Origin: Polytrichum commune
Lineage: Eukaryota; Streptophyta; Polytrichopsida; Polytrichales; Polytrichaceae
Reading direction: 5' to 3'
DNA: 64,000 nucleotides
Assembly (NCBI GenBank): GCA_950295325.1
Contig: OX485803.1
Span: forward strand, 66,789,554-66,853,553
The notes under the pieces are model-generated. The model searched no databases. It saw only the letters and a program-made list of their open reading frames with translations, and was not told the DNA's origin. Positions 7,919 to 42,000 of this stretch are shown here, piece by piece. The translations under genes were made by a program, and so were the position numbers. How positions within the stretch are numbered: the stretch's first letter is position 1; each line of letters starts with the position of its first letter.

Positions 7919-7926
7919 TATATAAA
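7919..7926 (+). promoter_or_regulatory. Candidate TATA box upstream of laccase A
   Basis: TATATAAA in a block of about 150 bp that is nearly identical in copy B (52847-52854). It lies 1268 bp upstream of the laccase start codon (1275 bp in copy B). Use as the laccase promoter would require a long leader or a 5'UTR intron. The short frame just downstream (7945-8139) is conserved but shows no recognisable domain. Confidence 0.3.
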
Positions 7927-12100: not shown

Positions 12101-15100
12101 TTGTCCTTGGCGAGGGGGGTAGGTGCATGCCAACTTGTTTGCACATGCTCAAAGTGTTCACATTTGAAAGGTATTAATAGTCTTTATGGTCTTCTTATAT
12201 TTGCAATGCTCATTTTGGGGTTACATATTGATCACTACCAACATATGAGTCCTAGAGAGTTGTCTTACGTTGGTGAAAGAACAATGTTGAAATTCACCAT
12301 TGTGCTAGAATTGCAGATTCTCCAATGACAGAGGTCAATTGTCCAGGACCCACATGCTTGTTGTAGATTTAGACCAAGTGCTTGAAGATGAAGCAACACC
12401 AATTGGTGGCAAAATTGGAGTCGTCTTTCTTTCATTTTTAGAGTTTGATGCATGCACGTCTTTTCCAAAAGATTTGAATTCTATAGCTAAGTTTGCAGAC
12501 ACCAGACGAACACACATGACCACAGTTGTTTTAGTCTACTTCTAGAAACTGATATTGGTGAATCTTGTTTCTTTGCAGGAGAATGGTACCCTAAAGATCC
12601 AAATGTAGTGGAATCAAATGCCCTAGCAGGACATGCTGCAAACTTCCAAGTGTACACATCATACACCCTCAATGGGTGGCCTGGACCTTTGAACAATTGC
12701 TCTAATGGTAAATTAAATTCATCCTGAAAGAATCTGATCAATTTTCTCCGACTATTCACAATGCCTTCATCATTATTCGCCCAGAAGATCATGTTACGCA
12801 AGAAGCACGACTTTACTCATAAACGAATCAACACCTACCAATTACATGTATCAATGTCAGTGTTCAAGTTAACATTTCACCCAGTCCACTATAAAAGTGC
12901 CTTCAATACAGAATTTTCTTGAACATATAATTATAAGCTAGCAGTTATACAGCATTGCATTTCAGTGTCTTACTTCTTGAGAGAAGTTAGTAATTTGTCA
13001 ATATAGAATGCCCATTGTTTGGTGGGTGTATTCAACACACTTAATCCTAGACTGTTTGTGGTAATTCTTTTGCTGCTGCAATTAATCAATCAATCTATTG
13101 ATTTGAGTAATTGGTGCACAGGTTATGCGAAGCTGAAGTTTGTTGCAGGGAAGACATATTTGCTGCGACTTGTTAATGCGGCACTCAATAATCACCACTT
13201 TTTCATGATAGCAAACCACACGATGACAGTTGTTGCAGCCGATGGGGAATATGTGAAACCATTTACAGTTACAGTGGCATTGCTCTCGCCTGGACAGACT
13301 ACGGATGTCCTGGTTACAGCTGACCAACCAAAAGGTAATTTAGGACACATTGGAGTTTAATATCCTCCATTTCAACAAGACTTTGTTTTGGAAGTTGGTC
13401 TCCTATGATATTTAATTGGTTTTTCTGCATAGAACATCAATAATTTTATTAGAGTCAACATTCAATTCAACAGGACTTTTTGCTGGGCATTGGTCTGCTC
13501 TAATTTTCCATTCGTTGTTTTGCATAGAACATCAATAAAAAAAAACAAAAAAGTATGTTTGTGGTGTAATATGTTTGGAGATAGTGTTTGAATTCTGAAT
13601 GAAGAGAGAAACTTTTACTTATTTTCCAGGTTCATTGAGGGTCAAACTAGTTTTAGCACCTCTTGACATGTCAAAATGAGTTGGACCTCCAATGAACCAT
13701 TGAACCAATGTAGAATGTTCTTCGTTCAAACCTCCACACTACCTTCAAAAATGTACGAAAAACTTACCAAACAAAAAACTTGGTGTTGTTTATTTATTAT
13801 AATCAACTCGTGACCAAAATCCCCATGGTCAATTAAAAGATAACTCTACTATGTTTACCAAATGTCATGCTAAATTCATCAAATCTAGTCCTATGTAAGA
13901 AGAAAGCACCGTAAACACCATGTGGAAATTTTCATGAAAAAATAAGTATCGCGGGTTGAACCAGACACAACTCTATGGGTACCAGGTCCTTATGCAGGCA
14001 AAGTTGTTTCCTGGAATTAGTGGGTGGCAAGCCTAAGCTTGTGGTCAAGAGAACATAAGTATTTTTTACAAAGAGACTAAGGTATAGCATGCTATAATCA
14101 TTACCCTACCCTTACCAAGAATCTAATATCTTACACCATACTTAGATATTGATTTTGAGAATGTTCAACACCTTAACATTAAGCTCTCGGGATGATTTTG
14201 GGTCGTCTACAAATAACACTCTGAATCTTTGTGATTTTTGCACATGAAATTCAAACAAGAAATATTACCCTAGACCTAAATTGAATTCATTCCTTGCATT
14301 CCATTTAAAAATAAATAAAATCTAATAACAGTAGCAGCTACCTATACTCAATGCTTCTTAGAGTGATGCTTTTAACACCCGTCACAAAGATTAAATTGGA
14401 TCATTGTCACTGGTTCTTTGCCACTACAAGCAATTTTTAGGTATCCAACGACCCATAATCCTTGTAGTTACCGTATATTTTACCTTAGCGTACCTATCTG
14501 AGTAGAAAATTTTGGAAGATTATGGAGACAAGTTTGTGTGCACGGGAGTCATTGAAATTGCTTTAAATGTTGGCTTCACCAGTCACATTCTTATGGTGTC
14601 TTGAACTTTTTCTTTCAATGTAGGCAAATATTACTTCGGAATAAGCGAATGGCGACCGTTGTCATTAGCCACGGATACTTCACCTTCAACACCCTCGATT
14701 GGAATTCTTGAGTATAGCGGTTGCCCCTCCTCTTCATCAGCAGCGGCGAAACCCTCTATAAATATGCCAACATTTCCTCCGCTTAATGACTCAACATTGG
14801 CACACAACTTCTCAAACAGTCTCTTTGGGTTGATCAATTCCAACCTTCCACGCACCACGGACCGTAGCTTTGTTTTCGCGGCGGCGGTTGCGAATGTTGT
14901 GTGCACCGCGGCCGAAAATTGCACGACGGGGACCAAAATTGCAACCACCCTCAACAATGTGACCTTCGACACCCCGACCAACAGCTCGATTTTGGAGGCC
15001 TACTACTACAAGACGAAAGGCGTGTACACGACGGACTTCCCTCCGAACCCGCCGGAGGTTCTCAACTTCACATCGAGCTCCACGGTCCTGCAGTACAACT

Positions 15101-15724
15101 TGACGTCGCACCGGGGAGCGAAAACACTGACGTTGAAGTATAACCAGACCGTGCAAATTATCCTGCAAGATGTCGACGTGTATCTTCTGGACTACCACCC
15201 GTTCCACTTGCACGGACACAATTTCTACGTGATTGGCTCCGGGTTCGGGAACTACAATGCCACCAGCGACCCGAAGAACTTCAACTTGGTGGATCCGCCG
15301 ATCCGCAACACCGTGGGGCTGCTGGAGGGCGGATGGGTTGCCATTCGTTTCTTAGCCAACAATCCAGGTGAGTCCTAGCATCCTTCAGGTCTTGTCAAGT
15401 AATGATGCTCCCAAGAAAAGATGGAATAGTTGGCATGCGATATCCGTTCATCACCTTCTACCCATGTCCACGTGGGCATGGGGGTTGCAAAGTTGATTGA
15501 TAAACTGAAGGCACAACTCATACCAAAATGAAAATATTTTCAATGTTTTTCTTACAGAAGTGTGTTAATCATCTTTGGTGACATAACAAAATATTGGTTC
15601 ATTGATAGAAGCATTAGAGCAACCCCTATGGTCATTAGAAAAGGAACCTATCATATTCGGTTTTCAAATGTTTTTTGGGCCAATATGACATGCTTGTTAT
15701 CTTTCACATAAATCATAAATCTTC

Positions 15725-15758
<34 letters not shown>

Positions 15759-16999
15759 CTTTAACTTTCAAATCTTGAGGGTGGGAAGGGGTGTAGAGTG
15801 TTGTCTCTTTCCTCCCCCCCCCCACCCCCCCAAAGAAATTAAAAAGAATCTAGAAAACCAATTATTGAGAGAAACATTTTCTAGTGACCATAGGACTTGT
15901 TAGATGATGGTGCTCATGGATTGATGATTTGTTATTTCACAAAGAGGAGAAACATGTCGGATCTTGAATATTGTGCATTGAGAAGGTCCATCCAATGATA
16001 GCATTCAAGTTTCTGATTTACAAATTAAGGGTTTTAACACTTTGAAATGTCTAGATATTTTTATAACTTATTAGAAGCAATTCTCTAAAGCATGGATCTA
16101 GTACATGCAAGTTCCTTTTCCTTGGAATATTTGGTTCTTTGTCCTAGAACCAAAGTCCCTACACTATTTGTGACTTTCAACCTAAATCTGCTCTGCAAGG
16201 ACCCTTCACAAAGTCTTAACTCATATAAGAATGAGAACAACTTGCAATGGCTGAACTGATATTATGATGTGTACTCTTAAAAGAAACTCTTCCATACTAC
16301 GAAAGCACTCCAAATTAAGATTTACTATTCTTAAAAATGTTTAGCAAATTTAGAGTCCGAACTAGGCTCTAAAGACAATTAAAGGTGCTATATAGGAATT
16401 ATTCGGTTACTTTTCTAAATTGGACATCTATATTTGGTTGGTGTGTGGTTAGACAAAGTTCGAGGAACAAAGATCATAAATGACACATAGTTCAAAGAGA
16501 TTGGTTTACGTCTTTAAATTTTCTCAACTATTCCACAATCAATAGTGAACACAATTGAGAGAATCCATGTATTAACCTACGGAATCAACAAACATGCACT
16601 TCCGATAACCATGAATCGTGGAACCTCCGATTTTCAATCTGGTTTTCGATGATGTTTCATCATAGTTTTGCTAATGCAACACAAATTTGACGGCGTAAAC
16701 CTGATGAATAAGAGAGTAGAGAACAAGAAAACCAAACCGTATAACACCCTCATGCCTTTGTTGCCATCCCAGGGAAGCAATCACTTAATTACACCAAAAT
16801 TCTCACACCAGTTTCTAATGTATGCACCTTTTTTTTTTTTGACTTGGCAGGAGTTTGGAACTTCCACTGCCACATTGAGAGGCACATGTCATGGGGCATG
16901 ATGATGGCCTTCATCACAGAAAATGGGGAGGGACCGACCGCAACATTGCCTGCCCCAAAACATCGCTTGCCACAATGCAAATATGACCCAAACCCCTGA
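9187..16999 (+). CDS. Laccase (plant multicopper oxidase), copy A, seven exons
   Basis: Secreted copper oxidase of the laccase family (benzenediol:oxygen oxidoreductase); plant members oxidise monolignols and other phenols in the cell wall while reducing oxygen to water. Exons: 9187-9321, 9736-9887, 11430-11668, 12579-12707, 13122-13334, 14624-15367, 16851-16999. All introns are GT-AG and the joins stay in frame, giving 586 codons plus stop, the usual plant length. Residues 1-31 form a signal peptide ending PAAA. Copper sites: HWHG at 95-98 (split by intron 2), WHAH at 139-142, HPFHLHGH at 481-488, [12 protein letters not shown] at 543-554. C544 and H549 would bind the type 1 copper, with M554 in the axial position. 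Many N-x-S/T sites fit a secreted glycoprotein. The start is the only Met giving a signal peptide. Which LAC subgroup it belongs to cannot be told by eye. Confidence 0.95.
9520..9682. other. Insert with hairpin in laccase A intron 1
   Basis: About 165 bp absent from intron 1 of copy B, which runs from 'ctattac' straight to 'agggggtc'. It contains nested perfect stems: CCACATTG (9543-9550) with CAATGTGG (9594-9601), and CCATGTT (9567-9573) with AACATGG (9580-9586). Origin unknown. Confidence 0.55.
10421..10650. mobile_element. 230-bp dispersed repeat in laccase A intron 2
   Basis: Present only in copy A; copy B joins the flanks directly at 'gggcacttcc|aactcc' (near 55210). The insert is bounded by a 6-bp direct repeat ACTTCC (10415-10420 and 10645-10650). 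Its reverse complement aligns over nearly its whole length with 20875-21085, including several AACCGG blocks. No inverted termini or poly(A) were seen. A SINE-like or LTR-derived fragment is possible; class not determined. Confidence 0.6.
11900..12017 (+). repeat. 5S rRNA-derived sequence in laccase A intron 3
   Basis: The stretch GGAACTCCGAGGTTAAGC (from 11934) and TACTCGGATGGGTGAC (from 11971), followed by CTCTTGTGTACCC, follows the order and spacing of the internal-control half of plant 5S rRNA (AGAACTCCGAAGTTAAGC ... TAGGATGGGTGACC ... CTCGTGTTGCACCC). The 5' half is much more diverged. It is probably a 5S pseudogene or part of a 5S-carrying retroelement such as Cassandra TRIMs or a 5S-derived SINE. 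Not a functional 5S gene. Copy B retains only the first part. Confidence 0.7.
13373..13540 (+). repeat. Imperfect tandem duplication in laccase A intron 5
   Basis: The segments 13373-13442 and 13468-13537 are diverged copies (both start 'caaca-gactt' and end 'catagaacatcaata'). Copy B has only one, which accounts for much of its shorter intron 5. Confidence 0.6.
15728..15756. repeat. (GA)n microsatellite in laccase A intron 6
   Basis: An uninterrupted GA dinucleotide run of 29 bp. Copy B has a shorter, interrupted version at about 60097-60115. Confidence 0.95.
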
Positions 17000-17185
17000 A
17001 TGATAATTCACAGCACTGACCTCGAACTTCTTGCTAAAGATGGGATTGGCATTTGAGCATTTCTCATCTGATGTCAAGAGGTTGCCAATTTTGGTGTTCT
17101 TCGATTATTCTTTTATAAACACTTTGATTTGTTACAGAGAGGCTCAATTGCCTCTTCAATGATTTCAGTATCACTTTGAAACGAA

Positions 17186-18179
17186 CTTGCGGACCATCTT
17201 TCACATAACTCCCCCCCTCTCCAAAAAAAAAGGGATTTGGTTTCGATTGAGTCTGTATATTATAAATTGGATTTGAGTCATTCTACTTGAAATTAACTTA
17301 ACCCTTTCAGATATTTCCTCCTGCCCACGGACTGTATTTGCTTTGAAAACTCTTCTCCATTTTGCATCCGCAGTTCAGTCTACTGTTGGAATATGAATTT
17401 TTTAGTCGCTTGAGTCAGAAAAATTCGAAGGGATATAGATTTAGGTGAGATTTTTGTCTTTTGGTCTTTAAATTGCAGTTTCCCTTTTGGTAGAAGCGAA
17501 CTCTTAACCCGTTAGGAGTTTGAAAGAGCAGTATGCATCCACTTCTGTCAAAAACCTCACTGTGTTGAAGATTTAATTCCTGTTGAACAACAGTGCAAAA
17601 ATCAACGGCCGAAACTGGAAAAGTAAGAAAACAAGAAATGTCATGGAGGAATCTGAGGGCAAGAGGGGGTTACCGCATAGGAGCTGCTTACCTCTCATTC
17701 ATCCTACATAAAGGCCTTTGAATAGTATGCAGCCTAGAGGTTATTCTTTTTGGTTAATTTGACAACCAAATTAATTATAAAGACCCCGAAGTAGTCTTGT
17801 CCAAGTCATTTGAGACAACACAATTACAAATCTATAAGGTAGAGGGTGCTTAAACTAACACTTTAAGTTATTGCACATACATATGGTTATGTGGTTGATA
17901 GAAATATTATACATTTATATTAGCCTTTGGGCCAAACATGAATATAAAGAAAAGAAAAATAGTCTTACTTGAACATTTGATGAATACTCAAAGTCAAAAC
18001 CACCAGCTACCTTAAACTTATTCATAGGCCCTCTGTATGACAACCTTGCATATGATGAGGACCCCCGCCTTTTGTTGGTTCATTGCCTAGAACCAACAAA
18101 ACATAGTGGGGTACTAGATCCAAGCTAGATCATAGCCCAACGTGGCCACCTCTATGATCCCACCTGGTTGAGTTGTAAA
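17186..18179. other. Intergenic, no gene seen
   Basis: Sequence beyond the end of the segmental duplication. It carries weak similarity to the upstream flank ('cctctcattcatcctacataaaggcc' type phrases near 17690 and 6390), so it probably contains repeat debris. No coding region. Confidence 0.5.
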
Positions 18180-19535
18180 CACGGGGGGGTGACTATCGGA
18201 ATTTTAGAAACCACGTGAGATAAAAAATAGGGTCAATTTAATTCGTTGAGGGTAAAATTTAAAAATTCGTTAGATCTACCATAGCTTTGGAAATATGTCC
18301 CATACATGATTATATATAAAATAGGGCGGTGAATAATTCCTCCATTTTAGTAATCAGTAGAAAAAAAATAGGATTATAGATATTGGATCCCCCCAAATGT
18401 GTGTAGTAGAATCAATAGAATAATTATGGGTTTGACTACTTGGATGAAGAATTGTGTAAATTCTGTCCAAATTTGAATGAAAAGTGTTAGTATGGAGGGA
18501 AAATGTTGTGGATTTTTTTGGGGGAAGGAACATTGTGATTTCTCAACGGCCCTTGGGTTGGCTTAGGGTTTGGACAAGCATAGTGGCGTGAAGGCGGTGA
18601 AGCGTTTGGGTAGGAGGTCTTGCGTTGGTGAAGCGTGAAGGGATGAAGCAGTGAAGCAGTGAAGCGTGGCACAAAGGCGGTAGGTAAGACACATTTTTTG
18701 GAGCTTTCTTCGTTGCTCCATAGCATTCATAGCATTCACACAGGTGTTTCACAAGCGCCAAAGATTCGGCTTGCTCCTCTTGCGGTAAGAGTCAATTTCG
18801 AACTCCAATTTCTTGATTTTTCTTGATTGGAAGTTAAACCTCTCCAAAACATTTTGTCTTATCATGACATTGTAGAGGATATCGATATGTACCTTGACAT
18901 GTATTGGAGGGTGCATAGTTATATCCTAACCCTTCACATTGTAAATATTTGGTACAAGGTTGAATGTGTTTGTGAACACAATTAAAGTAAATGTTTTTAA
19001 TTTTTGTATTTGGTTTTTTCAATTGAATGCAATCTTTTGTTTTGGAGAAGATAATTATGCAAAATTTCATATCTTATGACAATTGATTATAATTCTTGTT
19101 TTGTTCTATCCGTGTTTACAACTTGTCTATGTTATCTTCATGTTCATTGGTAATCTTTTAACTAAACTCCAAGTGTTATTGGTTGTGTTTTGAATGGCAT
19201 TTTGAATGCTTTAGCATTGGTATAACTAATTGAAACCGATTAAATAAAAAGATGGATGGTGTGGAACGTTTGTTGCTCACATAGTTGATTTTGCAATGCT
19301 ATAGTATTCCGTTCACTATTTGGTACTTGTACGATTTATAAAAAAAATATGATGCCAAAAATTGGTCTCTCTAAAAAATTACAAATAAACATAGGGTGCT
19401 TAAAAATATGTCAAAGCAACTTTATATCTACAAATAGGGAGGGAAAAAATACCAAGAGGTGCATAAATACCCCCCCATTAAATACCCCATTATCGCACGT
19501 GGTTACAAACTGTAAGGGGGTGTGACCCCCCCGTG
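18180..19535 (-). mobile_element. Non-autonomous hAT-type element, 1.36 kb (family 1)
   Basis: Starts CACGGGGGGGTGACTATCGG and ends with the inverted counterpart ...GTGACCCCCCCGTG. Its whole length aligns in inverted orientation with 31343-32687. Both ends carry an internal AAACCACGTG/CACGTGGTT block. No transposase frame is present. The flanking 8-mers do not match, so either the target duplication has decayed or the ends were rearranged. Superfamily assigned from the related copy with a perfect 8-bp duplication. Confidence 0.7.
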
Positions 19536-22067: not shown

Positions 22068-23368
22068 TCAGATGATGGCCTGCTTCTTGTAGCAAAAAGA
22101 ATCTGTTTGATTGAGGAGCTCCAACTCGATCTTCAAGTTTTTGCAGACATCAGGATTATTAGCCTCGGTAGGATCGGTTCTTGGGATTACACCAGCTTCC
22201 ACGGCTTGGTTATACCCCCACCGCCAATCGTTCCGCCCACCGATCCAGTTCACTTTCCATGTCCAGAAGATCCATCCTTTCTGTTTCTCATAGCTATCCA
22301 TTTGAGCACCGAACCAGCTTCGGTACCAACTCACCGCGTCACCTTTGTTGATGTCAAAGTCATCTGAATTAGGGTATTCTGTCGCCAAGCTCCACTCTCC
22401 GACAATGATAGGCGAGTTTCCACCAACATCCTCAAAACAAGGGTGGAACAGGTAATCTCTCCGCGTGGGCGGGACAAAGCAGCTATGAGAGGGCTGACAA
22501 TCTCCATCGTAGGCCCGGTAGTTATGGTCATCGTAGAGTGCGAAGCTTAGGTCGACGTCCCCCAGGCCTTGGGTAGGGTTACCTCCACCCGCGTACCATC
22601 GGCCATCCATCATCTGAATGTGGAGTCGACTATCCGCAGACACTTTCAAGCCATCCTCCACAGCCCGGATGCGTTTCCACGCATTAGGGTAAAACTCATA
22701 AAACATGCTGTGCTTCTCGCCGTTTGTAAACGGCACAGGCTCGTCCACAATTTCGATGGCGCCAACGTTACCGAACGTGCTGTCTGTATGTCTGACGCTT
22801 GTGATCCACTCCAACCACTGGTATGCTCTCTCGTAGATTCCAGAGTCGAAGAACCCCACCCGCTTCACGGATTTCCTCGTAAACTGATGGTTAGGGCTCT
22901 GCCCTCCCGGTGCAGCATGTAACTCTAAGATGATGTACAAGCCCGCGGATGTAGTCATGCGGCAGACATTCTCGAGGTAAGGAAATTCACCTCGAGAGAA
23001 GAGCTCACCAGATTGGACAAGCTCGTCGTGGATCCAAACCCTAATGGGATCCGCACCGTGTTCAATCCATAGCTCTTGATCAGATTGATATCCTCCTGAG
23101 TGATCCAGGATCCCCAGTGGCGCTGGAACGTTGCATCTGCAGCGGCTTGCCCCAGAGCTTGAGTACACTCAAACTCGTCGTTGCGATGCCTGCAACCCAT
23201 GCTGTTCCATTCGTCCCCCATCATCCATGGCTCCACGATGAAGAGTCCTCCCAAATTCACCCCCCGAATCTTACTTTCGTTCGGAAGCCATTCATTGGCA
23301 CTCGAAATGCTGCAACATAGTAGCAGGATTAGGCCCAAAGCAATCTGCAAATCGCCGCACTTGATCAT
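22068..23368 (-). pseudogene. Fungal-type exo-beta-1,3-glucanase (GH5), one frameshift
   Basis: Reads like the secreted fungal GH5 glucan 1,3-beta-glucosidases (subfamily 9), which release glucose from beta-1,3-glucan ends. The start at 23368 gives a signal peptide (MIKCGDLQIALGLILLLCC...SSA). Conserved stretches follow in order: IRGVNLGGLFIVEPWM, DEWNSMGC, WITQEDINLIKSYGLNTVRI, LELHAAPGGQ, IEIVDEPVPF (acid/base Glu; the usual Asn before it is Asp here), DDHNY, and IIVGEWSLA (nucleophile Glu). At about 23037 one base is missing in the LGF-WIHDEL region, which moves the frame; the rest is open to the stop at 22068. Full length would be near 433 residues, normal for the family. No introns. A recent pseudogene or a sequence error are both possible. 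Transfer from a fungus to a plant ancestor is inferred from similarity only. Confidence 0.85.
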
Positions 23369-24620
23369 CACTGAATCCTCAATCACCCTCATTCCTGGAG
23401 CTGCTTTGAAATTCTCTGCAGCTTGATCATGTGCTATTCTGAAGATCTGCTCGAGCATGGGTGAGTTTGTGGATGGATCAGTCTCCATATTCATGCCATG
23501 ATGTATGCTGTGACTTTGCTGTGGGCCACATGCAATCACTGCAAGGTATTTGTTGCGTCACCGGCACAGGGATGAAGTAAGCGGTACCAAAAGAGCCCTA
23601 AAGACCCACAATCTCGGAGCCTGCGACCTTGCCTTTGAAGATCTACAAAGCAGATGCTAACTTCGAGGCCCGTTTGTGGCTTCATGAGTGGGGACGATCT
23701 AAGGGTCGCTTCACACACGAGACTGAGGGCCCGCGACCATTGCACTTCAAGCACTCTCATGGGTGGAAAAGGTGGAGCCAGTCCAAGTTCGCTTCGCACT
23801 ACGCCTGACGGACCAAACGAAGTGAATGCAAGATGGATGTAAGGTCTACATGGATTTCTACATGGCATCAATTGGATCATGTTTTCATGGTTACATGGTT
23901 ACTTGGATTATTTGTAAGAACCATCTCTTGGAGGTAGGCCTAACACAAAACCGGGAGACCATTGCAATCTGGAACCTCACAATCGTTGATTTATTATATT
24001 TTATCATGTGTGAGGACCCTGTATGAATAGAAATTCATTGAAATAGCTTTTGGTTGAGGGCATGGTCACATATGACTTCACACTACACTTGAGGACCCGT
24101 GACCACGCTACATGATTTTGGAAATGTCTTGGGATGGCCTTTGGACACTTCTTTTGGACTCTCACAAATTACAACTCTTAGCTCGTGTGTGAAGGGGCAC
24201 CAAGAGCCTTGAAATTCCGTCACTGTTGTGTAGAATATGGGATTGAGTAGATGTTGTCACTACACCATTTATGGTATTTAGTATCACATGCGTAATAGTG
24301 TCATTGACCCTATTTTGAGGTGAATGCTAGGTTATATTAATGATCAACAACTTCACCATAATTTTAGTGTCATCTCATGACACTTGGGGTTCAAGTGCGC
24401 TTACTAATAACTTGGCACATTAAGTATGTTCAAAGTGTTATCAGGTGTGTCACACAATGGTCTATGAGATGACTAAAGTATACACAAATGGCACTTGGCA
24501 TTAGTATGCTCAATAACATCTTCCCCTTTCATACTAAAACATAGAACTATCATCTCAAATATCTCAATGTGCTAAGCTAAATGTCATAATATAAATTTGT
24601 TTGAATTTAAAACGTGATTT
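23369..24620. other. Intergenic, no gene seen
   Basis: The frame of the GH5 gene stays open upstream to 23539, but that part precedes the signal peptide and looks like leader sequence. Nothing else is recognisable. Confidence 0.5.
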
Positions 24621-29375: not shown

Positions 29376-30299
29376 ATTATTCAAATAATGAATCCAAATT
29401 ATTTGGAAAATAATCTAGATTATATGTATGATTATGTGTACATAATCTATGCCTTTGTGAAAATTTTGGACGAGCCCCTTGTAATTATTTGCATTAGTTG
29501 TCACCATGGGCTCGAGGCTTCTAGCTCAAGCGGCTAAGGGAAAATATCTACTTGGCCCCAACCCTTCTAGAAAGACAAAAGGATACTTGACGGTGGGGTA
29601 GGGGCCCTGCCCAAAGTCCTAGAGGCTTACATGGGTGAGGCGGCTTAGCCGACCGACCCCACCCGAAGGATACTTGGCAATTTGCTCCGGGTTGTTGTAG
29701 TGTTGTTTTGGCAACATAATGATCAACTCAAGAGTGGACATCCATGAATGAAAGCCCACATTAACCATTGGCTACCTACTAAGGGGAGAGTCTTGAATGC
29801 ATGTATAGGAGGGTTTGGTTACCAAGCCATGAGCCTGGAGGTCCGCGGTATTGGGAGCTAACCATACATGTGCGTGGGATGTGCAGGTTAGCACTCATGG
29901 CACTTGCTAGAGTTGGAAAACGGTCAAGCTAAGTTAAGGAAAACTAGCAAAGGTCGCGACATCCCATGCTTTTTTTGATGGTTGTCAATTGACACCCCTT
30001 TATGAGGCAGTATTTCAAGGGAAGGATGTTTGTATATCTTCATTCCCAAAACCACTTGGAGAACCCATTTTTGCTAAACCCTTGCCTCTAACTCTGCATG
30101 TACAATTTTAAAATTGTGCTAAAAATAACAAATATCGATATATGATTTGTTTTTGGTCGTTGCTCTTCGCAAAAGGCATTTTCAAAATGTTGTTTGTGTT
30201 TTTCTTTATCATTATGGGGCACACGCACGACGACATTAATGCGTCATTTGGCCGTTGGAGCATGAAGTTGCATAAAGAGGATTTTCCCACCATACCACT
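29376..30299. other. Intergenic; possible retroelement debris
   Basis: Relatively GC-rich patch at 29510-29700, including TAGCTCAAGCGGC, which resembles a tRNA-type A box. No matching B box was found, so I do not call a SINE. No protein-coding signal. Confidence 0.35.
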
Positions 30300-31342
30300 T
30301 CTCATGAAATTATAAATAAATTTGGATAATGCATCGGTGATCCTGCACATGATTGAGGAAATACCGAATTTCAAGGCCTTCATCAAGCCATACATGTTGA
30401 AGGGAGTGGACCGTTTGGTTGCACATACCAAAGAACAACAATTTTGCTTCTATATGGGGGATGATGGTGTCCTAACATGCAATTCAAGCTTTTGTGCACA
30501 TATCTTAATTGGGGGCCAGAGGATGGTATACTCGTGTGGCGTCAAGACAAGGATGAGAAATGCATGCTCCTAGTTGGGGATCTGAAGCTTTGCAAACCCA
30601 ACCCATGAGGAATGGGCCGGAACTCATCAAAGGTATATCCGGATTCATTGAATATTGGAAAGAATTGTTTGAAGAATACATCACCAGACGTGTTTGAGAT
30701 ACTCATGAATCATTGATTGCGTATTGGGATGACATTCGCTTGGCCTTGTTGACACTTGGTATCAAGATCCGTACGACTTTTATACAAGAATATTGGCCAC
30801 AAAATCGATGGGTTGTTGTGGGGTCTGATGTCATATTCTTCAGTAATGGAGATGTCTGTGAGGAGTTCGCAATGGACGAACATTATATTGACCCTGCGCA
30901 CAATCATCTAGCTTCATCGTTTTATGTGGTTGTTGATTGCCATGAAGGTTATATGGTCCTTATACATGCAAGAAATGAGGAGCACCTCAAGCCAATTTGG
31001 TTGGTGAAAGCATTGTCTTCATCCAATTTTGTTTGAACTAGCCCCAACTTTCGTTAAATTGAAGTGGAATATTGCCGTCCAAGCACCAAAGACCAAAACT
31101 TGCTCCACACCTATTTAGGTTGACACCAAAAAATGTTTCAAATGGACAATGGACTCAACATACGGATCGGTTTGGATAAACACAAGTACCATATTTTGTG
31201 TTTGGAAGCCGCGCAAAGATTTCAAATCGGAAATAATGACCATCCCCCAAAAACATACAAATTTTGCCAAAGACAGCTTGGCACGTATTGTAGCTGCAGA
31301 AAATGATGCCAAGAATGGGTATGAAATGGAAGATGGAGATGG
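30300..31342 (+). pseudogene. Coding remnant of a large unclassified element (3' end)
   Basis: Broken frame. Open stretches include 30322-30490 (..FKAFIKPYMLKGVDRLVAH..), 30713-31036 (..DPAHNHLASSFYVVVDCHEGYMVL..) and 31149-31342 (..DFKSEIMTIPQKHTNFAKD..). I do not recognise the family. The end is also present in inverted orientation at 20215-20336, where it reaches a stop a few codons further on. Here that end is cut by the hAT element at 31343. Multi-copy status suggests a transposon-encoded protein. Confidence 0.5.
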
Positions 31343-33085: not shown

Positions 33086-33394
33086 AGTGTTATCCCATTT
33101 TATAATCAAATGTGCAAGGAACAAACAACATGTCATTTTGAAGATCATACAACATAAATATTTACATGGGTATAAAAAATATTAGTCACATACACAGTTG
33201 ACAAGATGTATGTCATCGATCATAGGCCGAAAATACGAGAAGAATATGACTTGGGTTATACAAACGGCTGTTTGTATACCTCCCTACACATGTTTCAGGA
33301 GGATATATTTACGAACATCCGTTCGTATGTCCCAAGCCGTATTGTTTATGTCAACTAAAACATAGATCATAACAATTGAGGTATTTACGGATGT

Positions 33395-33805
33395 CACGGG
33401 GAGGTCACTCCATTGTCAAGTTGAAAACCACGTGCGAACAAAGTTTGCTACCCCTATATTATATGCCATAGATAATTTTAAAAACTATGATATTTTTTCT
33501 ATATATACATATCCATTGATAATATCTTTTTTGTATTTTTTTGAAATTTTTAGTCATCTCCATTTTTTCTAGTAATTTGTTTAGTTCAATTCTGCGTCAT
33601 TCTAGTTAGAAACGGTATATTTTCTAGGAAAAACAAATTATCAATTTTGGTTATCAATTTTTACTATGTAATAGATACCATGTATATGTACTCATAAATT
33701 TTTTTTGATAAAATTTTGACCCATTTTGTTAATGCAACTTAGAAAAAGTAGATTTTTTTTGTTCACACGTGGTTTTCAACTTGACAATGGAGTGACCTCC
33801 CCGTG
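33395..33805. mobile_element. 411-bp hAT-type MITE, family 1 derivative
   Basis: Terminal inverted repeats of about 48 bp, nearly perfect, start CACGGGGAGGTCACTCC and contain AAAACCACGTG. Flanking 8-mers are ACGGATGT (33387-33394) and ACCGATGT (33806-33813), a target duplication with one mismatch. The ends share CACGGGG and AAACCACGTG with the 1.35-kb elements, but the interior is unrelated and AT-rich. Confidence 0.85.
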
Positions 33806-33901
33806 ACCGATGTACGATCGTAAAACGCTTGTAAAACATGCAGAGCAAAGCTCTTGCCATTTTTACATGTTGGCACGAGTGTTGGGAGTCGCAAATTTCC
33901 C

Positions 33902-33991
33902 TTGAGAGTTGCAAACTTGGGAGTAGAGAGATTGAGAGTTACAAGCTTGAGAATTGCAAGCTTTAGAGTAGCAAGCTTGAGAGTTGCATGC
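33902..33991. repeat. 15-bp minisatellite, six units
   Basis: Six consecutive 15-bp units of the type TTGAGAGTTGCAAGC. As the unit is a multiple of three, open frames with five-residue repeats cross it on the minus strand; I regard these as artefacts. Confidence 0.9.
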
Positions 33992-34839
33992 ACATAAAGT
34001 GTTGTTGCAAGGGTTTGTATATAACGTGTGAGGGCTTGAGAGTGTTAGGGAGGATTGAGTGGTACGAGGGTGCAATCAATTGAGTGTACATTTGTGAGGT
34101 TTTATGGATTTTTCACTAAGAGAGGAAGCACATATTTTGGGTGTAGACCAATTCAATGTGAGTAGAGCAATCCTTCTGAACTCACTTCCCTCACATTCTA
34201 AAATTTGTTCATTATTAAATTCTATTTGTTTTCTTAATGCAAGCTGAGCATTGGCATGTTCTGTATGCAAGTTTTGCCATGTTCTTCAATTTGGTGTTCT
34301 CTCACATTCTAAAATTCAAATAAGTTTTGATTCAATTTTTTTTCTTCAGTTTCAATCATTCTCTCGTTTTATCTTCACTTAGTGTATCCAAAGGCACTAA
34401 TTCGAGGTTGATATGTATCAATCACAAACCAAGAGTTACAGGAAACCATGCAAGGATTGTTGATACATAGCAAGCAAACCTATGTAAAACACATTCATAT
34501 ATGTACAGATATATAATAAAGTTTTATACATGACATATAGGCGCATCCATTTATGAACGCGCATTCATAAATTCCAAACCAATGGATGAAAAATTTAACA
34601 ATAAAAAATAAAATAAACACAAAACCCTTTTATGAATGGGCGCTTGTAAACATCTGCATAATAACCAAGGGCTACATATTTACAAACGCACGTTTGTAAA
34701 TATATGCTACATACAGAATACACAACACGCCAATGCTATAATAATTGTAGCGAATAAAAATACATATACATGAAGACCCATCTTATGTATGTTATATAAA
34801 TAACAAAAACCACTATATGTATTCGACACTATATTTGTT

Positions 34840-35180
34840 AATCAAAGACTTTGGGAAGTCTTAAAATAAATTGGACCCATAGTTTCGGATGCGAATATTG
34901 TGAACAAAAGGAACAATGGCAACATAATGTTTTGGAAATCCATATGAAATAAAAATATATGATTCTAAATATAGTAATTCTCTAAATGATAACCAAAACT
35001 ACATCAAACACAAATTTTTAATGACAAAAATTCATAATTATTTTGTCTTGTCGGTTTTGTATTGAACAAAACTATCAAATCCATATATAACCATTTGTTT
35101 TAATAACTATAGACTCTTGCATGCGTATCTCAAACATAAAGGTCTTATTAAATTGGACGGCACATCCCAAACCTAACAAT
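34840..35180 (-). repeat. Inverted end copy of the large-element family
   Basis: Matches 19830-20120 in the same orientation (AAAGACTTTGGGAAGTC..., AATATTGTGAAC..., CATAAAGGTCTTATT...) and 32830-33085 and 38650-38780 in inverted orientation. With the copy at 38.65 kb it forms inverted ends around the coding remnant at 35.4-38.4 kb. Confidence 0.6.
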
Positions 35181-35398
35181 ACTTAGAATAATTTGACAAT
35201 GGTATTGAGAATTTGCAAATTAGCATTTGGAATATATAATTTGGATTACACATCCGCAAAAAATTATAAAAAACTTATGATAGCACGTGGGAAGTTGGTT
35301 TCCACATCTGTAAACTATTATAATCATGTAATATAATTGTAATCTATAAAATTTATATATAATGTGTTTAATATAGTATTCGACCCAAGTGTCATAAT

Positions 35399-38300
35399 AT
35401 GGAGCTGATCTTGAGGCCCAACATCTCTCTATACCGTGAGAGTCAACGGAAGAGGAACAAGACTCCGTACAACAAATACCCTAAAGGCGCGGTCTTGGAC
35501 CTTTTCAATGAAGACGAGGATGAGGTTAAGATGTACAATGCCATCTCTGCCTTGCCTCCTGAGCCTGGCAAGGTGAAAAAGAGCCAACGTCCATGTCCGA
35601 ATTGGACATGAATTGAAGATGGAGAAGAGAATGAAGGAAGAGCTTGACCACGGGCTCCAGGAGGCCAACAAGTTGCACGCCAAGAAGATGCATGCCATCC
35701 AAGTTAAGATGGAGCAAGCTAGGTTGGAGCCGCCTTCATCTAGTAGCCATGCAATGTATATACCAAAGCATGCCTATCCAACCCCCGTGTTGAACGTCCC
35801 ACCCTCTCCCCAGGTTGCCGCCACTCTAGAGCCCTCCTCTCGACTAACCTCTACCGGCAACCTAGACTCACGGGCGCGCGTCCAAAACTCTCCAGAGCTC
35901 CCCTCCCTTCATAGTGCATGGGCCACACCCCCTTAGAGTGCCACAGAGGAGGACGCCTCTAATTTCACAATTTTGAGGGGGGATGTAAATAGGGCGGGCA
36001 AAGACATTGCGCGACACACCGACAATGTGGAGGAGCCACATGAGAGCCCGACACGTGAGACAATAGGTGACGATGAGATAGTTGTCAATCAAGACAACGC
36101 CTCCATCGGCAATGAAGATGTACATATGCGGGGGAGCCACGACGTCACAGAGGTGGAGCAACCTTACGTAGATCTATACCCAAGCCTCTCTAGCAGCTCA
36201 AGACACCTTGATGGTGGACACAAATGGTCTTTACAATATCACGGATGCGCGTCTAGAACCTGTGCCCATGGTGACGAATCATGGTGAAGGAGGCACTACT
36301 GGCCTGGACCTCGCCGTTGAAGAGGTAATCAACCTATGAACATGCCTCCCACGTTGCGGATGCGCGTCCGTATGTACCATGTTTGCCACCTTCGTGGCGG
36401 TGCATGTTTTTGAGTTCAACTCTAGCCTTCCCCCCACAAATGGAGGCAATTTTTCTAGCATAGATTCCATTAACTTCTGGAAAGAAAGCGCTAGATTTTT
36501 GGGCTCATTGATAGATGTTCTTTGAAAAATGTATATCACCTATTACATTAATAAATCTTTTTGAACAAGATAGTTTGGATTATTTTGGCCTTCTATTTCT
36601 TTGTTGAATTTATTTATGTTTGTCAATTAGTTTTCGTAAGTAGTATCATTCACCTAGATAGAATGATTCATCACAGGGTCCGTCGGAGATAGCTTGCAAC
36701 CCTCTGGAAGACCAAGTTGGCCATTCATAATATCTTACCTCAATGGGGTGCTTTGCCATTCCAAGCATATCCCACAAAGTGCGTTCAAGGGGCCCTTCCG
36801 TAGTCCACAAGACATGGATTAAGGCGGACAATTCGATACCTTCATTAACAAAAAGGCCGTCTAGGCCCGACCCAGCTACGTGAGTCCTTCGTGAGGTCCT
36901 CGGCTTGGCCCATGTGCTCATGGACAACATGGAGGTCATCGCCAATTTTATTTTCCAATAATTTACAATGCCCTGCTTGCTTCTCGGTCAAGAATACTGC
37001 GATGAGCTTCATGACCGTAGTGGCAAGATTGTACCCAAGGTCGCAGGAGGTGGTGGGCCGCAATTCCTAAAGGTCCTCAAGAAGAACCTTTGGGTGGGTG
37101 TTCCTGTGTTGGAGGAAGTGCCCCACGGTTGTTTGCCCTCCCCAGAGAACGCTCTCCTCGTCGATGACAACCCTCAAAGAGTCTCCTCAACCCTCCGGGC
37201 ACCGTCACCTTCTCGGATCATTGGAAATGCAATAGAAATGACACCTTCCTAGAGAATGAGCTAGGTCTCTACATTAGGAGGCTTGCCTGTCACCCCGGAA
37301 GTGTCCCGGATTTTGTCCTCTCCAACCCCATTGGCAATAGGCCTCTCGGTCCACGAGATGAAGTATTTAGGAAGTTGTATGGGAATGCTAAATTCCATAA
37401 GTTAAATTGAAAACTTTGAACATTTTTTTATTTGTACTTGGATCCTCCATGTTTATATCAAACCATTCCCCCATTTTTTTTGTAATGTATTTTTGTGTCT
37501 TAGTTGCCTCACCAAGCGTCCCAAAGTGTCGTCAATGGCCCGTCCGCATCTCCATTGGGCCCTGGCTCCCCTTCCCTTGGTATGAGCGATGTTGCAATGC
37601 CTTCACTATTCCATTTTTTGGATGTCGAGCTACCTCTGTTGTTGATTACTCCGAAGACTCTAGGTTTGAAGACGGAGTTGTGGATTGCTCTCCTACAAAG
37701 GTAGCAAAACTCAACTACCCTCCATCTCCCCTCCGCAACAAGAAACACGTTCGTATTATTGACATTAATGCGTCACCATCCAAATATTTCATCCCCAAGG
37801 GCCCACGGTCGACTAGAAGCCTTTGCATGGATGAACCCTGGATTGATGTCCCAACCTTTACGAACGTCCCTATCATGCTTGTATCTACCCTCATCGATGT
37901 CCCCGAAGCTCAAACAAACACCCCCAAGGCCAAGGTGCCCAACTCTTGGCCTTCTCAAGTTTTTCCTTGACAATGTTGGTTTCCATGTATTAATGCATTT
38001 GTGTTTTTTGGGTTTTTCGGACTTGCATCCATAACTTGTGCCCACTTATACAAACCCACTTCATCATATACATTTGTGGTCGTTGTTTCAAACCCTACCG
38101 TACTCGAATGTGGGCCGTCCATCCTCGATTTTTTCATTGGATAGGCGAACCATGAAGACCGATTCTTGCGAGTCCGATCGTTGTTTGGCCCTTCGGAGGA
38201 GTGCAAGACATTCAGTTTCACAAACGCCTTCATATTCCACTCACAATACCACATCCCACAATTTGGTAGCGCGTCGGCAAATATGGACGAACGGCACATA

Positions 38301-38448
38301 TTCCGGACCAGTAAACAAACAAGGTTACAGCCTTGGGTCCAAGATCTTTAGAGCCATGGAGGGCATTAAAGCAAAAGAAAAAGAAACGGCCACAAAGGCT
38401 ATCGCAAAAATAAAAGTAGTGCGTCGTATTGACGATCCAAACGTGTAG
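35399..38448 (+). pseudogene. Element-borne gene remnant with FCP1/NIF phosphatase-like part
   Basis: Open segments on one strand: 35399-35611, 35613-35936, 35973-36287, then about 36840-37400, 37640-37970 and 38038-38448. The part at 36880-37250 reads VLREVLGLAHVLMDNMEVI, a stop near 36958, then LGQEYCDELHDRSGK, FLKVLKKNLW and NALLVDDNPQRV. It is followed in another frame by LGLYIRRLACHPG...LSNPIGNRPLGP. This order resembles the FCP1 homology (NLI-interacting factor, HAD) phosphatase domain, including the DD motif before 'P'. The N-terminal DxDx(T/V) nucleophile motif was not found. The N-terminal part is Pro/Ser-rich with a charged helix; the C-terminal part is basic (MEGIKAKEKETATKAIAKIK). 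Stops and frameshifts show decay. Inverted repeats and palindromes flank it, which suggests a transposon that acquired the domain. Confidence 0.45.
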
Positions 38449-38778
38449 GTTATATTAATATACATTTAGTTTTCAAATGTATTGGCTAGTGATCGATTAT
38501 ATTTCAAGGACTTTGGCCTAATATTACATATTTCACTTGTATTTTGTATTTCAATCCTATTCAATAAATATGATACCAATTTTGTATACGCAAATGTTTT
38601 CATGTATCCCATTTTCTTATTTCCGTGTGTGTAGTTTCATGCATTTGAATCTCATAACTATATCCAATATTGGGAACATAGCATATTCATAGTGTTTTCC
38701 TTCCTACAAATGTGAAAGCCATGTTCTTAAATAGTCTCAAAGTCATCAAAAAGTCTTTGATTACTGAATATTGTGTTA

Positions 38779-39018
38779 TTTACAAACGTGCATTCGTAAA
38801 AATGTCTAATGTACATTTACACATGGCACATTACATTTTGTATTTATGGACGGTCGTTCATAAATATGCTACCAAAATCTAGTGTAACAATTCAATGTGG
38901 ATATACTTCATGTTGTGCAAAACATTTCCACACAAAGAACATACTACACCCATGCCTACAACGCTCGCAATAGTGCATGCCACACGGTATTGTTATTTAC
39001 AAAGGAAACGTTCGTAAA
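38779..39018. repeat. Right cluster of 22-bp palindromes (three sites)
   Basis: Same half-sites as the left cluster, at 38779-38800 and 38843-38864 (22 bp each) and 38996-39018 (23 bp, more diverged). The first follows directly after the end-repeat copy at 38650-38778. Confidence 0.75.
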
Positions 39019-42000
39019 AACAAATCTAAATGTGTTTGTTATTTTGAAGATGGCGAGAACAAGCAGAAGCACAATCAATTGTTTGCAATGCTTATAATGC
39101 GTTTGCTAGATACCATTTAGGACATAAATGGCAATGACACCTATCTTCCCAAAGAGGACTTCATGGAGGAGTATAGGACACTAGTGCGTGTATTTCCAAT
39201 ATATTTCCTTACTCACCGCTCACAAGTTACTACTCACATGGTAGCACTCCCTATAACCAAATATAGTGTTTTGGATGACAATTTTGATAGCCATGGGTAG
39301 GCTCTTTGACACCATTGAATTTTTTTGATTATATACTCTACCATGCATTCACATATAAATAACTTGATCCAACATTGGTAAATCATGATGACCTCTAAAG
39401 CACATGGGTGCAAGCATGGTAACGTGGACCAAAATATTGGTCCGGTATACTAAAACCATAGTTTTTTGGTCAAAGGCCTATAAGTAGTAGCAAAGTGTTG
39501 TTTAAATTGGATTTTTTTTCATGACGACTTCTAATGTTGTGTTAAATACTCAAATATAGAATATCAGGTTGAGATCTTCAATACGTTGTCATTCAAAATG
39601 ATGCTCAAAAGCAAATGGTTGAGTATAGTTTCGAACATAGATTTCATGACCTTAACTATTTTGAAGTTTGAATTTCCTTCCATATTCCTTGAATCTATTG
39701 TCTACTTGAGGGCATCATCACAAAACCTTGTAGAAAACCAATTATTTAATGTAATTCTATCGTATTTTAAACAAATTTTAGACAATCATTTGATCAATAT
39801 CACCTACTAGCACACCACTTGCGCCGTCTTCTAAAATATGTAGACTTTTCTTGGAATTGTTTTGTCATCATAATTTGCTTGGCTTAGTAGATCAATATGT
39901 TTTTAAAATGTCTATGATTTTTTCTTCACAAATTTCAAAGTTTGTGTATAGTTTTGAAACACTTTCACCGAACACTAGGCAGGATCATGAGGTGTCCACT
40001 TTACCGTGCTTGCACCCACATGTGCAATGCTTTACTACCGACATATGAGTCCTAGGCAATCATCTTAGATTGTGAGAAGAAAAAATGAAAATCTACTACT
40101 GTGATAAATTTGCATATTTTCTGGTATGTAGAACAAGTTTTAGTGATGCAGGTCAATTACCCATGACTCAAAGAATGTCACTACTCACTGCAGCGTCCTA
40201 TGTCATATTCCCGGTTGACTGTAGTAACAGTAACAAAACAAGGTGTGCTGGAGGAGTTGCCTTGTCGTCACCACAACTGGTGAATGATGGAAGCTGACAA
40301 GAGTCAGGTACATGGGAAGCTTAAAAGCTGATATTATCCCCTCACATCACTCAGTGGTTAGCCCTCACAACTTAAAGATTCTGTTGATTTAGATTAATGT
40401 TGCTCAAGGGAGTTTTCAATGTGTTAACATTTAACCCCTAAACGCTCAAGCCTTCACCTTCCAATTTTGGGCACTTCCAAAATCAATGCTGAATTTTTTT
40501 TGTCATGTAGCAAAATAGAGTATGTTTTCTTGAAATTCAACCATATGGATGCAAACTAGATTACCATGTATTCTTGTTGTGAAAATTTGAAGTCAAATCG
40601 GACCACATTTGCTAGGTTAGCTTGACATATGAACATGGTCTTCATCCGGAGGGCAACTAGAGAAAACTTTAATTTTTTTGATCCATGACCATTTCGGTCA
40701 TGCCACAAATTTTAGAAGTTTTGGAAACCTTGCGATGATATGTTATATGGATAACAAATGAGCTACTCCCAGAAATTTGGGTTTCTTCAAAAATTTAGAT
40801 GAAGTCCATTACCCTCAAAGTTAGAGGGCCACATAAGGTAATATTTGGGAGATTCCCCCTTTTCACGGGGCAAGCAAAATGTGCACTAAATATTTTCCAA
40901 ATCCATCTGAATAAGTTGTCCACAATTGTTACCTTGTCTTAAGGAAAAAAACATTACCCAAATTGGGCATCATATGTGAAAAATATCAGCTCCTAAATGT
41001 GGCTCCTAAATTTGGCTCTTACATTTGGGCAACTCATGAGACCACCTCCCAAAACAAGCATTCTAACCTAATAAAAATTTATACACACTTGAAGTAAGAG
41101 GCTTTTAAATGTTATTTTGGCCCATATAAGCACCACCCTACACCGGTAGATACCTTCCATCCCACTAGATTGCCACCTACTCAGTCGCAAACCCCATCTG
41201 AATATTAGGTGGTGACCCATTTCAGGTTGCATGAGCGCTTAAGGGTTGAACACAGAAGAATGTCGGTTGAAGGGGACTTAGTTTGCAAAGAAATTTTGAT
41301 CGCACAAGCATAGGGAGGGTTATCAAGTTACAAGTTATAAGTTGGATAGATTTGATGACAATTCATGATTGCTGTTACATACAGATCCAAGTCTTTATCC
41401 ATTTCTCGAGAGGTGGTTAGATTGATAGTATGTGACAAAGGCCATGTGTTGACATGACTTGGATTTTTGCAGTGGTAGTGCATTGTAAATTGCAGAGTCA
41501 TTATTCTTAACACTATATTAGGTAATTTGAGACTTTGGGCATTTTGAGACATTTACATATATAAGAACATAGGAAAAGTTACATTAATATTAGGGAATGT
41601 GTGAAACTCAAGCATGCGAACATTTAAGAGTGGCGATATTCATCAATACACAACCCAAATAAGAACCAGAATTAAGATGATTTCGTAAGACAACCCAAAC
41701 ATGAGACAATATTGGAGGAGACATGACATATTCATATTACGGGAAATAACTAAAATACAAAGTCTAGTCAAAGAAACTAAGTAGCAAACAAGCACCACAT
41801 AACCATTATTGGACGGTCCAACCTAAACTAAGCCTACTTATGTACAATTTCTATGCTAAAGTTGGCATTTTTGGCTTTGGCCCTTTTTTTCTTTTTCTTT
41901 TTTGTTTCTTGCATCGCCTTCATGTTCTAGAAAATCTTTGCTCCATGGCTATAGCCAAGGTTGGGACACGGTCCTACAATGATACATTTACAAGGCTGAC

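What the first reader, a model, noticed from the sequence alone, without database searches (positions are those of the whole stretch)
33257..39018. Array of 22-bp palindromes bracketing an element-borne gene
Eight sites with half-sites TTTAYRAACG and CGTTYRTAAA, seven of them exactly 22 bp, occur in two clusters: 33257-34700 (five) and 38779-39018 (three). I noticed none elsewhere in the window. The clusters flank the coding remnant at 35399-38448 and adjoin inverted end repeats (34840-35180 and 38650-38778). Fixed length with variable central bases suggests a dimeric protein-binding site, for example for a transposase or an anti-silencing factor like those binding sub-terminal motifs of some plant Mutator-type elements. 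The function is inference; the pattern is seen directly.
Basis: partly seen in the sequence, partly recalled or inferred. Interest (0 to 1): 0.75.

Follow-up and report, generated by a model that had tools for sequence, protein, structure and literature searches.

The report
Palindrome arrays inside giant plant transposons
The 22-base mirror-image sites are real: they are decayed remains of site arrays that a family of 16-17 kb plant jumping genes carries in front of and inside its own genes, in two versions that each go with a different version of one of those genes, which suggests a self-targeting switch like the few known ways jumping genes escape being silenced.

Summary
In detail: seven 22-bp sites and one 23-bp site, none elsewhere in the window at up to 3 mismatches. 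Genome-wide the motif occurs 3427 times against 2 for the reversed control. The reading must change. The palindromes do not bracket a transposon: a decayed derivative (34825-38777, flanks ATTC/ATTT) jumped into one array and split it; its joined flanks match contiguous DNA elsewhere. The array belongs to 16-17 kb elements with 27-bp termini (685 exact ends), 4-bp TSDs (8 of 11), a DUF7869 protein (gene A, presumed transposase), a DGQHS-motif protein (gene B) and an NLI/FCP-type phosphatase domain (gene C). Sites sit between divergent genes A and B and in gene B's introns, kilobases from the termini. Two symmetric dialects exist: TTTACGAACG-NN-CGTTCGTAAA, and TTTACGGACG-NN-CGTCCGTAAA (1147 sites); mixed sites number 43. 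In the elements examined, dialect goes with gene B clade (B1 about 42% identical between dialects; DUF7869 exon 86%). Best reading: a dimeric site for an element-encoded factor, probably gene B's product, working like Arabidopsis VANC anti-silencing. Binding and function are inferred, not shown.

The parts
33257..33278 (.). palindrome 1 (TATACAAACGGCTGTTTGTATA)
   Evidence: 2 mismatches to the loose pattern; lies in a stretch aligned with the L002 core
33308..33329 (.). palindrome 2 (TTTACGAACATCCGTTCGTATG)
   Evidence: 2 mismatches
34550..34571 (.). palindrome 3
   Evidence: 1 mismatch
34629..34650 (.). palindrome 4
   Evidence: 2 mismatches
34679..34700 (.). palindrome 5 (no mismatch to the loose pattern)
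38779..38800 (.). palindrome 6; its first three bases lie in the TSD of the inserted element
38843..38864 (.). palindrome 7
   Evidence: 1 mismatch
38996..39018 (.). palindrome 8, 23 bp
   Evidence: read
33092..34824 (+). left part of the decayed palindrome-bearing core of the outer element (GA dialect)
   Evidence: pieces match L002 1031-1086, 1153-1381, 5360-5900, 7247-7389 at 71-84%
38778..39045 (+). right part of the same core
   Evidence: 38777-38922 = L002 8649-8791 at 80%; joined flanks match contiguous genomic DNA across the junction, in one case out to query position 548
34825..38777 (+). inserted, internally deleted element, GG dialect by kinship; A-end TIR at 34825, B-end TIR at 38777
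   Evidence: termini, 4 mismatches each to a 27-bp consensus; left flank ATTC, right flank ATTT
34821..34824 (.). left copy of the target-site duplication (ATTC, one mismatch to ATTT)
38778..38781 (.). right copy of the target-site duplication (ATTT)
36721..37367 (+). remnant of gene C (NLI/FCP-like phosphatase domain in intact relatives)
   Evidence: matches Y 2710-2043 at 64%; PF03031 1.5e-16 in relative X
36353..36374 (.). decayed GG-dialect palindrome, apparently at the gene B intron 3 position
   Evidence: 5 mismatches to the GG consensus; position compared by eye with G
38014..38035 (.). second decayed GG-dialect palindrome
   Evidence: 5 mismatches; resembles element G position 17662
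29962..31342 (+). broken DUF7869 exon of a neighbouring element whose A-end is at 33091
   Evidence: 82% identity to X 14750-16131; terminus at 33091; frame broken

Best explanation
The palindromes are cis-acting sites of a large DNA-transposon family, each bound by a symmetric dimer of an element-encoded protein, most probably the product of gene B. Arrays lie in the non-coding DNA between the divergent genes A (presumed transposase) and B, and in the introns of gene B. By analogy with VANC I infer that binding at this density marks the element's own non-coding DNA and keeps it from being silenced, and may autoregulate both genes; dead or gene-less copies that keep the array can be served in trans. 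Shown: the element, its termini and TSDs, the array positions, the two symmetric dialects, and their link to gene B clade in the elements examined. Inferred: dimer binding, gene B as the binder, and anti-silencing. In the window the array is a decayed GA-dialect copy split by a GG-dialect deletion derivative.
For: Enrichment and linkage: 3427 versus 2 sites; 88 of 98 GA and 45 of 50 GG sites (the printed part of the lists) lie inward of an exact terminus, versus 5.1% and 1.2% of random positions. Placement: upstream of gene B in 14 of 14 regions from five frame-length groups plus X and L003, with different tandem units (42, about 50, 143 bp) and spacers that align to X only in pieces at 66-77%; in introns 1-3 of gene B (inferred from GT/AG and frames) in 3 of 3 elements from both dialects. 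Symmetric specificity change: GG 1147, mixed 43; position 7/16 is invariant in 144 of 144 distinct GA sites. Co-divergence: B1, B2, B3 42, 54, 34% identical between dialects, DUF7869 exon 86%; pN well below pS in both genes. Array kept without genes: L002, exact TIRs and TSD CATA, 26 exact palindromes, no gene B match. Analogue: VANC21 motifs lie in tandem repeats in introns of VANC21 and VANB21 and upstream of VANA21 (PMC5735166, passages and section 8).
Against: No binding, methylation or expression data. Only two dialects, so the gene B association is essentially one deep contrast; gene B may simply evolve faster than gene A (within the GA dialect B1 dN is 0.083 and A1 0.052), and gene C (61%) also diverged. 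No recognised DNA-binding domain was found in gene B; ParB-like matches are sub-significant (E 0.02-0.16) and no stronger than unrelated weak hits such as YEATS (0.015). Element G carries one GA-type site close to gene B's start, and H one mixed site. The lower change rate at palindrome CpGs is modest (12 distinct changes over 72 positions versus 12 over 26 flanking ones, 13 over 58 coding ones).
Confidence: 0.5

Rival explanations
1. The palindromes are transposase (gene A) binding sites needed in cis for transposition, as in subterminal repeats of CACTA or hAT elements.
For: Most listed sites lie within the elements, and a gene-less element, L002, keeps 26 exact sites.
Against: In the full elements read the sites lie kilobases from the termini, between genes and in introns. 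The DUF7869 exon is 86% identical between dialects while the motif differs at more than 1000 sites.
Confidence: 0.15
2. The palindromes act as RNA hairpins in transcripts (splicing, mRNA control or small-RNA precursors).
For: Sites lie in introns close to inferred 5' splice sites; the dialect change A-T to G-C keeps pairing; among changed CpGs, C>T (wobble) exceeds G>A (28 to 13).
Against: Within the GA dialect, of 127 changed pair cells 82 are unpaired, 40 are G-U and only 5 are Watson-Crick with both sides changed. Large arrays lie in intergenic DNA between the two genes.
Confidence: 0.12
3. The palindromes are bound by a host protein (transcription factor or silencing factor) that the element exploits or suffers from.
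For: The site is CpG-rich in AT-rich DNA: 72 of 98 CpG positions upstream of gene B lie in palindromes.
Against: A host factor does not readily explain two symmetric dialects that split along element gene B clades, or how few listed sites (10 of 98, 5 of 50) lie away from an exact element end.
Confidence: 0.13
4. The palindromes are passive: satellite-like repeats amplified by slippage inside the elements, without function.
For: Arrays are tandem repeats whose unit and number change between copies.
Against: The palindrome stays the same where spacers diverge; it recurs in small numbers in introns at matching places in both dialects; both half-sites differ together between dialects.
Confidence: 0.05

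Closest known systems
VANDAL21 / VANC21 anti-silencing system of Arabidopsis (Mutator-like)
   Same: Element-linked motif at high density in tandem repeats of non-coding DNA, in introns of the element's own genes and upstream of others; motif types differ between related elements (PMC5735166 passages).
   Different: VANC21 motif is a 9-bp non-palindromic YAGTATTAY arrayed in one orientation; here a 22-bp CpG-bearing palindrome and a DUF7869 element with 4-bp TSD. Kinship of gene B to VANC was not tested beyond Pfam (no hit). Demethylation not tested.
En/Spm TnpA and its 12-bp subterminal repeats (recalled; only a listing seen)
   Same: Element-encoded factor with many short target copies, linked to methylation control.
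   Different: TnpA sites are subterminal; these are internal and intronic.
Sola DNA transposons
   Same: 4-bp TSDs, present in moss Physcomitrella, some over 15 kb (PMC10741241 passages); a D/D/D-like motif set is visible here by eye.
   Different: No Sola sequence was available to compare; accessory genes B and C and palindrome arrays were not mentioned in the passages seen.
ParB-parS partition systems
   Same: A DGQHS-motif protein beside palindromic site clusters.
   Different: Match sub-significant; parS is 16 bp (recalled); no ParA partner looked for; eukaryotic transposon.

Membership tests
PF25273 DUF7869 (gene A) | profile match above the curated cut-off | tested here: met
   E 5.8e-40 in X, 4.5e-40 in G
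PF03031 NIF / FCP-SCP phosphatase (gene C) | profile match above the curated cut-off | tested here: met
   E 1.5e-16 in X, 1.8e-13 in H
Sola superfamily | 4-bp target-site duplication | tested here: met
   8 of 11 copies of one subfamily with both ends found (3 misses; 1 further copy lacked an end), plus G ATGG and L002 CATA
Sola superfamily | homology to Sola DDD transposases | not tested
   no Repbase sequence on hand; 'Sola' is a lead from PMC10741241 and PMC3627910 passages
Mutator-like (VANDAL) | long TSD of 7-12 bp and a MULE transposase | tested here: not met
   4-bp TSD; the only significant Pfam hit in gene A is DUF7869; TSD range from PMC10741241
VANC-like anti-silencing system | element-linked motif in tandem repeats of non-coding DNA | tested here: met
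VANC-like anti-silencing system | element-encoded protein binds the motif and removes methylation | not testable with these tools
   needs EMSA or ChIP and methylome data
ParB/Srx-fold (gene B) | significant profile or fold match | tested here: not met
   PHROG 1033 ParB-like E 0.02 (G) and 0.08 (H), DUF6551 E 0.16 (H), matched stretches cover the DGQHS motif; X and L003 gave no ParB hit; no PDB hit by sequence at E 10; fold not predicted

The most novel reading that the evidence does not exclude
A eukaryotic transposon carries a ParB/parS-like device: gene B's DGQHS protein loads as a dimer on palindromic arrays and spreads along the element, keeping its promoters and introns in an open, unmethylated state, while symmetric motif dialects co-evolve with gene B so that each clade serves only its own copies.
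Probability: 0.12. Interest if true: 0.92.

Novelty: new variant of a known kind. Interest (0 to 1): 0.7.

Why it matters
In the papers seen here, sequence-specific anti-silencing by a transposon is described for Arabidopsis VANDAL elements; En/Spm TnpA is a recalled second case. Here another type of element, abundant and with many near-identical copies, shows a similar placement of its motif with a cleaner signature: two symmetric dialects, each present at more than a thousand sites, that go with the clade of one accessory gene. That names a specific protein-DNA pair and a specificity position (7/16), and makes co-evolution of a selfish element with its own target sites directly testable. It also gives DUF7869 an anatomical context, as the probable transposase of elements with defined ends.

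Tried and rejected
Chance: rejected. Palindromes as subterminal sites of the 35.4-38.4 kb unit: rejected. Further dialects: position 7 as pyrimidine, 0 sites. Position 8 other than A: 38 sites, 27 of them the symmetric TTTACGGCCG-NN-CGGCCGTAAA, 10 with one GTC/GAC half, 1 other; in the one element read they lie in intron 2 of a GG element, so I did not count a third dialect. Relatives outside the genome: gene B (L003 frame) none in plasmids or phages at E 1, none confirmed in viral contigs; the DUF7869 exon none in viral contigs; genome contigs was not scanned. Gene B by profile: no Pfam, NCBIfam or PADLOC match of weight; weak unrelated hits included YEATS 0.015, Peptidase S24 0.15, N-SET 0.19 and, for the B3 frame, HAUS-augmin3 0.0013 (below its cut-off). 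PDB: best 0.82, none at E 10 with the alignment. The genome pattern lists print only the first places, so linkage counts rest on 98 of 3427 GA sites, 50 of 1147 GG sites and the 46 termini on C1 below 41.4 Mb out of the 100 printed. GA was counted with a looser pattern than GG and mixed, so those totals are not strictly comparable. CpG decay as a sign of hypomethylation: weak only. A first count included two badly diverged copies and failed to separate the upstream region; one search dropped L001, L034 and L036 (21 of 24 rows kept). One search printed some flanks reversed but not complemented; redid the TSD count. In the joined-flank search, 3 of 41 rows do not cross the junction (two are the window itself, one is a q2-38 side match); 36 of the 38 crossing rows reach only 44-57 bases to the left of it. 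Paper searches: DUF7869, 0 papers; DUF7869-like motif strings, 0; no title or abstract listed in the ten searches describes these palindromes.
Full report
1. The observation. One search finds seven 22-bp sites with up to three mismatches, all at 33257-38864, expectation 0.79 and 0 of 100 shuffles reaching seven; the eighth, a 23-bp copy, is at 38996-39018. In the whole genome (408 Mb, 64 contigs; window at C1:66789554) the exact pattern occurs 3427 times against 2 for the same pattern read backwards.

2. What carries it. Around such clusters I fetched whole elements. X (L005+L006) and Y (L007+L008) match over 16.1 kb at 99% and differ outside. Both begin and end with AACACTATATTCG...GGAGACTT. 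Of 12 copies of this subfamily, 11 had both ends, and 8 of those 11 show an identical 4-bp flank on both sides; misses are Y, c9 and c10, and c4 lacked one end. L002 contains the uninterrupted site into which X inserted: L002 4140-4569 matches X 1-430 (98%) and L002 4565-6918 matches X 16541-18872 (90%), the overlap holding the duplicated ACTA. Exact 27-bp termini number 332 plus 353, control 0. Copies look young: X and Y are 99% alike, and 49 of the 98 scored GG-clade gene B matches are 93-100% identical to G, many with open frames.

3. Genes. Gene A's second exon matches Pfam DUF7869 (5.8e-40); the 4-bp TSD, D residues in IHDKMDH, QFDNC and GHTHDDID (seen by eye) and the position at one end suggest the transposase (inference). 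Gene C matches NLI/FCP-type phosphatases (1.5e-16). Gene B has no significant family. The four B1 proteins aligned (X, L003, G, H) share DGQHS. Sub-significant hits to a ParB-like phage family (E 0.02 in G, 0.08 in H) and DUF6551 (0.16 in H) cover that motif, but a YEATS hit elsewhere in G is as strong (0.015) and X and L003 gave no ParB hit. DGQHR-type motifs belong to ParB/Srx-fold proteins (PMC4619093 passages). I treat that as a lead only.

4. Where the sites sit. In X most palindromes lie at 7640-8250 and 11609-12662, between divergent genes B (start about 7611) and A (frame from 12661), around a 3.3-kb centre, with single sites further into gene B. They are not at the termini. Introns 1, 2 and 3 of gene B (inferred from GT/AG signals and frames) each hold palindromes, at up to 4 mismatches, in X, G and H (3 of 3). 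In 14 regions upstream of gene B (X, L003 and 12 others) there are 7-14 sites at up to four mismatches; a site starts 50-53 bp before the ATG in 14 of 14, and 13 of 14 have CAG directly before the ATG (L055 has CAA). Tandem units and spacers differ: X aligns to the other groups only in pieces at 66-77%, while some other groups are closer to each other (74-85%, and above 90% within a group), yet the palindrome stays.

5. Two dialects. A relative of the window's inner element (L062) carries TTTACGGACG-NN-CGTCCGTAAA. That exact form occurs 1147 times, control 0; the mixed form (one half of each) 26 plus 17 times. Full elements are nearly pure (exact forms): X 16 GA, 0 GG; L002 26 GA, 0 GG; G 10 GG, 1 GA; H (one end seen) 12 GG, 0 GA, 1 mixed. 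In 144 distinct sites within four mismatches of the GA form, from 37 gene B upstream regions, the switching position (7/16) never varies. The two dialects have different gene B clades, about 42% identical in B1, against 86% and 77% for the two gene A exons and 61% for gene C. All 6 scored GG-clade gene B matches on C1 in the range covered by the printed GG list lie within 7 kb of a listed GG site (98 of 1055 candidates were scored). dN between dialects is 0.40-0.60 for B, 0.30 for C and 0.08-0.18 for A, with dS above 1 or saturated. With only two dialects this is one deep contrast.

6. Linkage in numbers. On C1, 88 of the first 98 GA sites and 45 of the first 50 GG sites lie inward of an exact terminus within 16 kb, against 5.1% and 1.2% of random positions. 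The remaining 10 and 5 sites may lie in elements with decayed ends; that was not tested.

7. The window. 33092-34781 and 38777-38922 match pieces of L002's core in order. Between them, 34825-38777 has an A-type and a B-type terminus and flanks ATTC/ATTT. With this unit removed, the joined flanks (563 letters, junction at 284) match contiguous DNA across the junction at 38 places besides the window: one over q16-548 (75%), one over q113-475 (78%), two over q227-425 and 34 over q240-425 (79-82%) (40 of 80 candidates scored). In the one read, L079, palindromes lie on both sides of the junction. Hence the two clusters are one array. The inner unit's coding part is 76-86% like 39 other scored matches. 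The relative read in full (L062 within G) carries the GG dialect, and the inner unit has two decayed GG-like sites. It is thus, most likely, a GG derivative inside a GA array. The neighbouring unit ending at 33091 holds a broken DUF7869 exon at 29962-31342.

8. Mechanism. A fixed-length palindrome with a free centre and symmetric dialects points to a homodimer. The co-diverging element protein is gene B (and, less so, C). Placement in introns and upstream DNA, dense tandem arrays, and retention in the gene-less L002 resemble VANC21 targets: tandem repeats in introns of VANC21 and VANB21 and upstream of VANA21, with density deciding occupancy (PMC5735166, passages and section 8), and VANC binding inducing loss of silent marks (PMC10398659 abstract). 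So anti-silencing or autoregulation is my best reading. Against RNA hairpins: of 127 changed pair cells 82 are unpaired, 40 G-U and 5 doubly changed Watson-Crick pairs; for them: C>T outnumbers G>A 28 to 13. Against transposase sites: position, and the conserved gene A. Palindromes hold 72 of the 98 CpG positions upstream of gene B; in 21 copies they show 12 distinct changes over 72 positions, flanking CpGs 12 over 26 and coding CpGs 13 over 58, while non-CpG positions show 8 over 108 in palindromes and 89 over 526 in flanks. That fits constraint as well as lower methylation and decides nothing.

9. Host. A contig (C8) has rbcL followed by a tRNA-like gene and an accD-like frame (read by eye), an order I recall from bryophyte plastids; a moss is likely, but no name is claimed.

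10. Novelty. Transposase type: probably known (Sola, not tested). Motif system: works like VANC or TnpA, but is not shown to be a member of either; the DUF7869 setting, palindromic CpG site, paired dialects and DGQHS protein are not described in any paper text seen here.

Noticed in passing
L005+L006 8272-11608; L002 2988-5982: A 3.0-3.3 kb centre between the two palindrome arrays, in which I recognised no gene, aligns in pieces at about 68-78% between X and L002 and is kept in the gene-less L002; its role is unknown.
   Followed up: no
X versus L003: Gene A (A1 dS 0.38) and gene B (B1 dS 2.6) of the same two elements differ greatly in synonymous divergence, suggesting that elements exchange modules.
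   Followed up: no
window 33393-33807: A 415-bp unit with 50-nt inverted repeats, 98% complementary, sits inside the palindrome core; looks like a MITE.
   Followed up: no
window 14605-15378 and 58924-59748: Two very similar laccase-like (multicopper oxidase) coding stretches lie on either side of the transposon-rich region (named by eye).
   Followed up: no
window 22068-23557 (-): Open frames resembling an exo-beta-1,3-glucanase (named by eye).
   Followed up: no
window 19823 and 41509: Two more element termini (A-type facing right, B-type facing right); the region is a nest of these elements.
   Followed up: partly
C3:38046047 and 26 other places: 27 symmetric TTTACGGCCG-NN-CGGCCGTAAA sites; in the element read they occupy gene B intron 2 of a GG element: perhaps a third specificity in the making.
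   Followed up: partly
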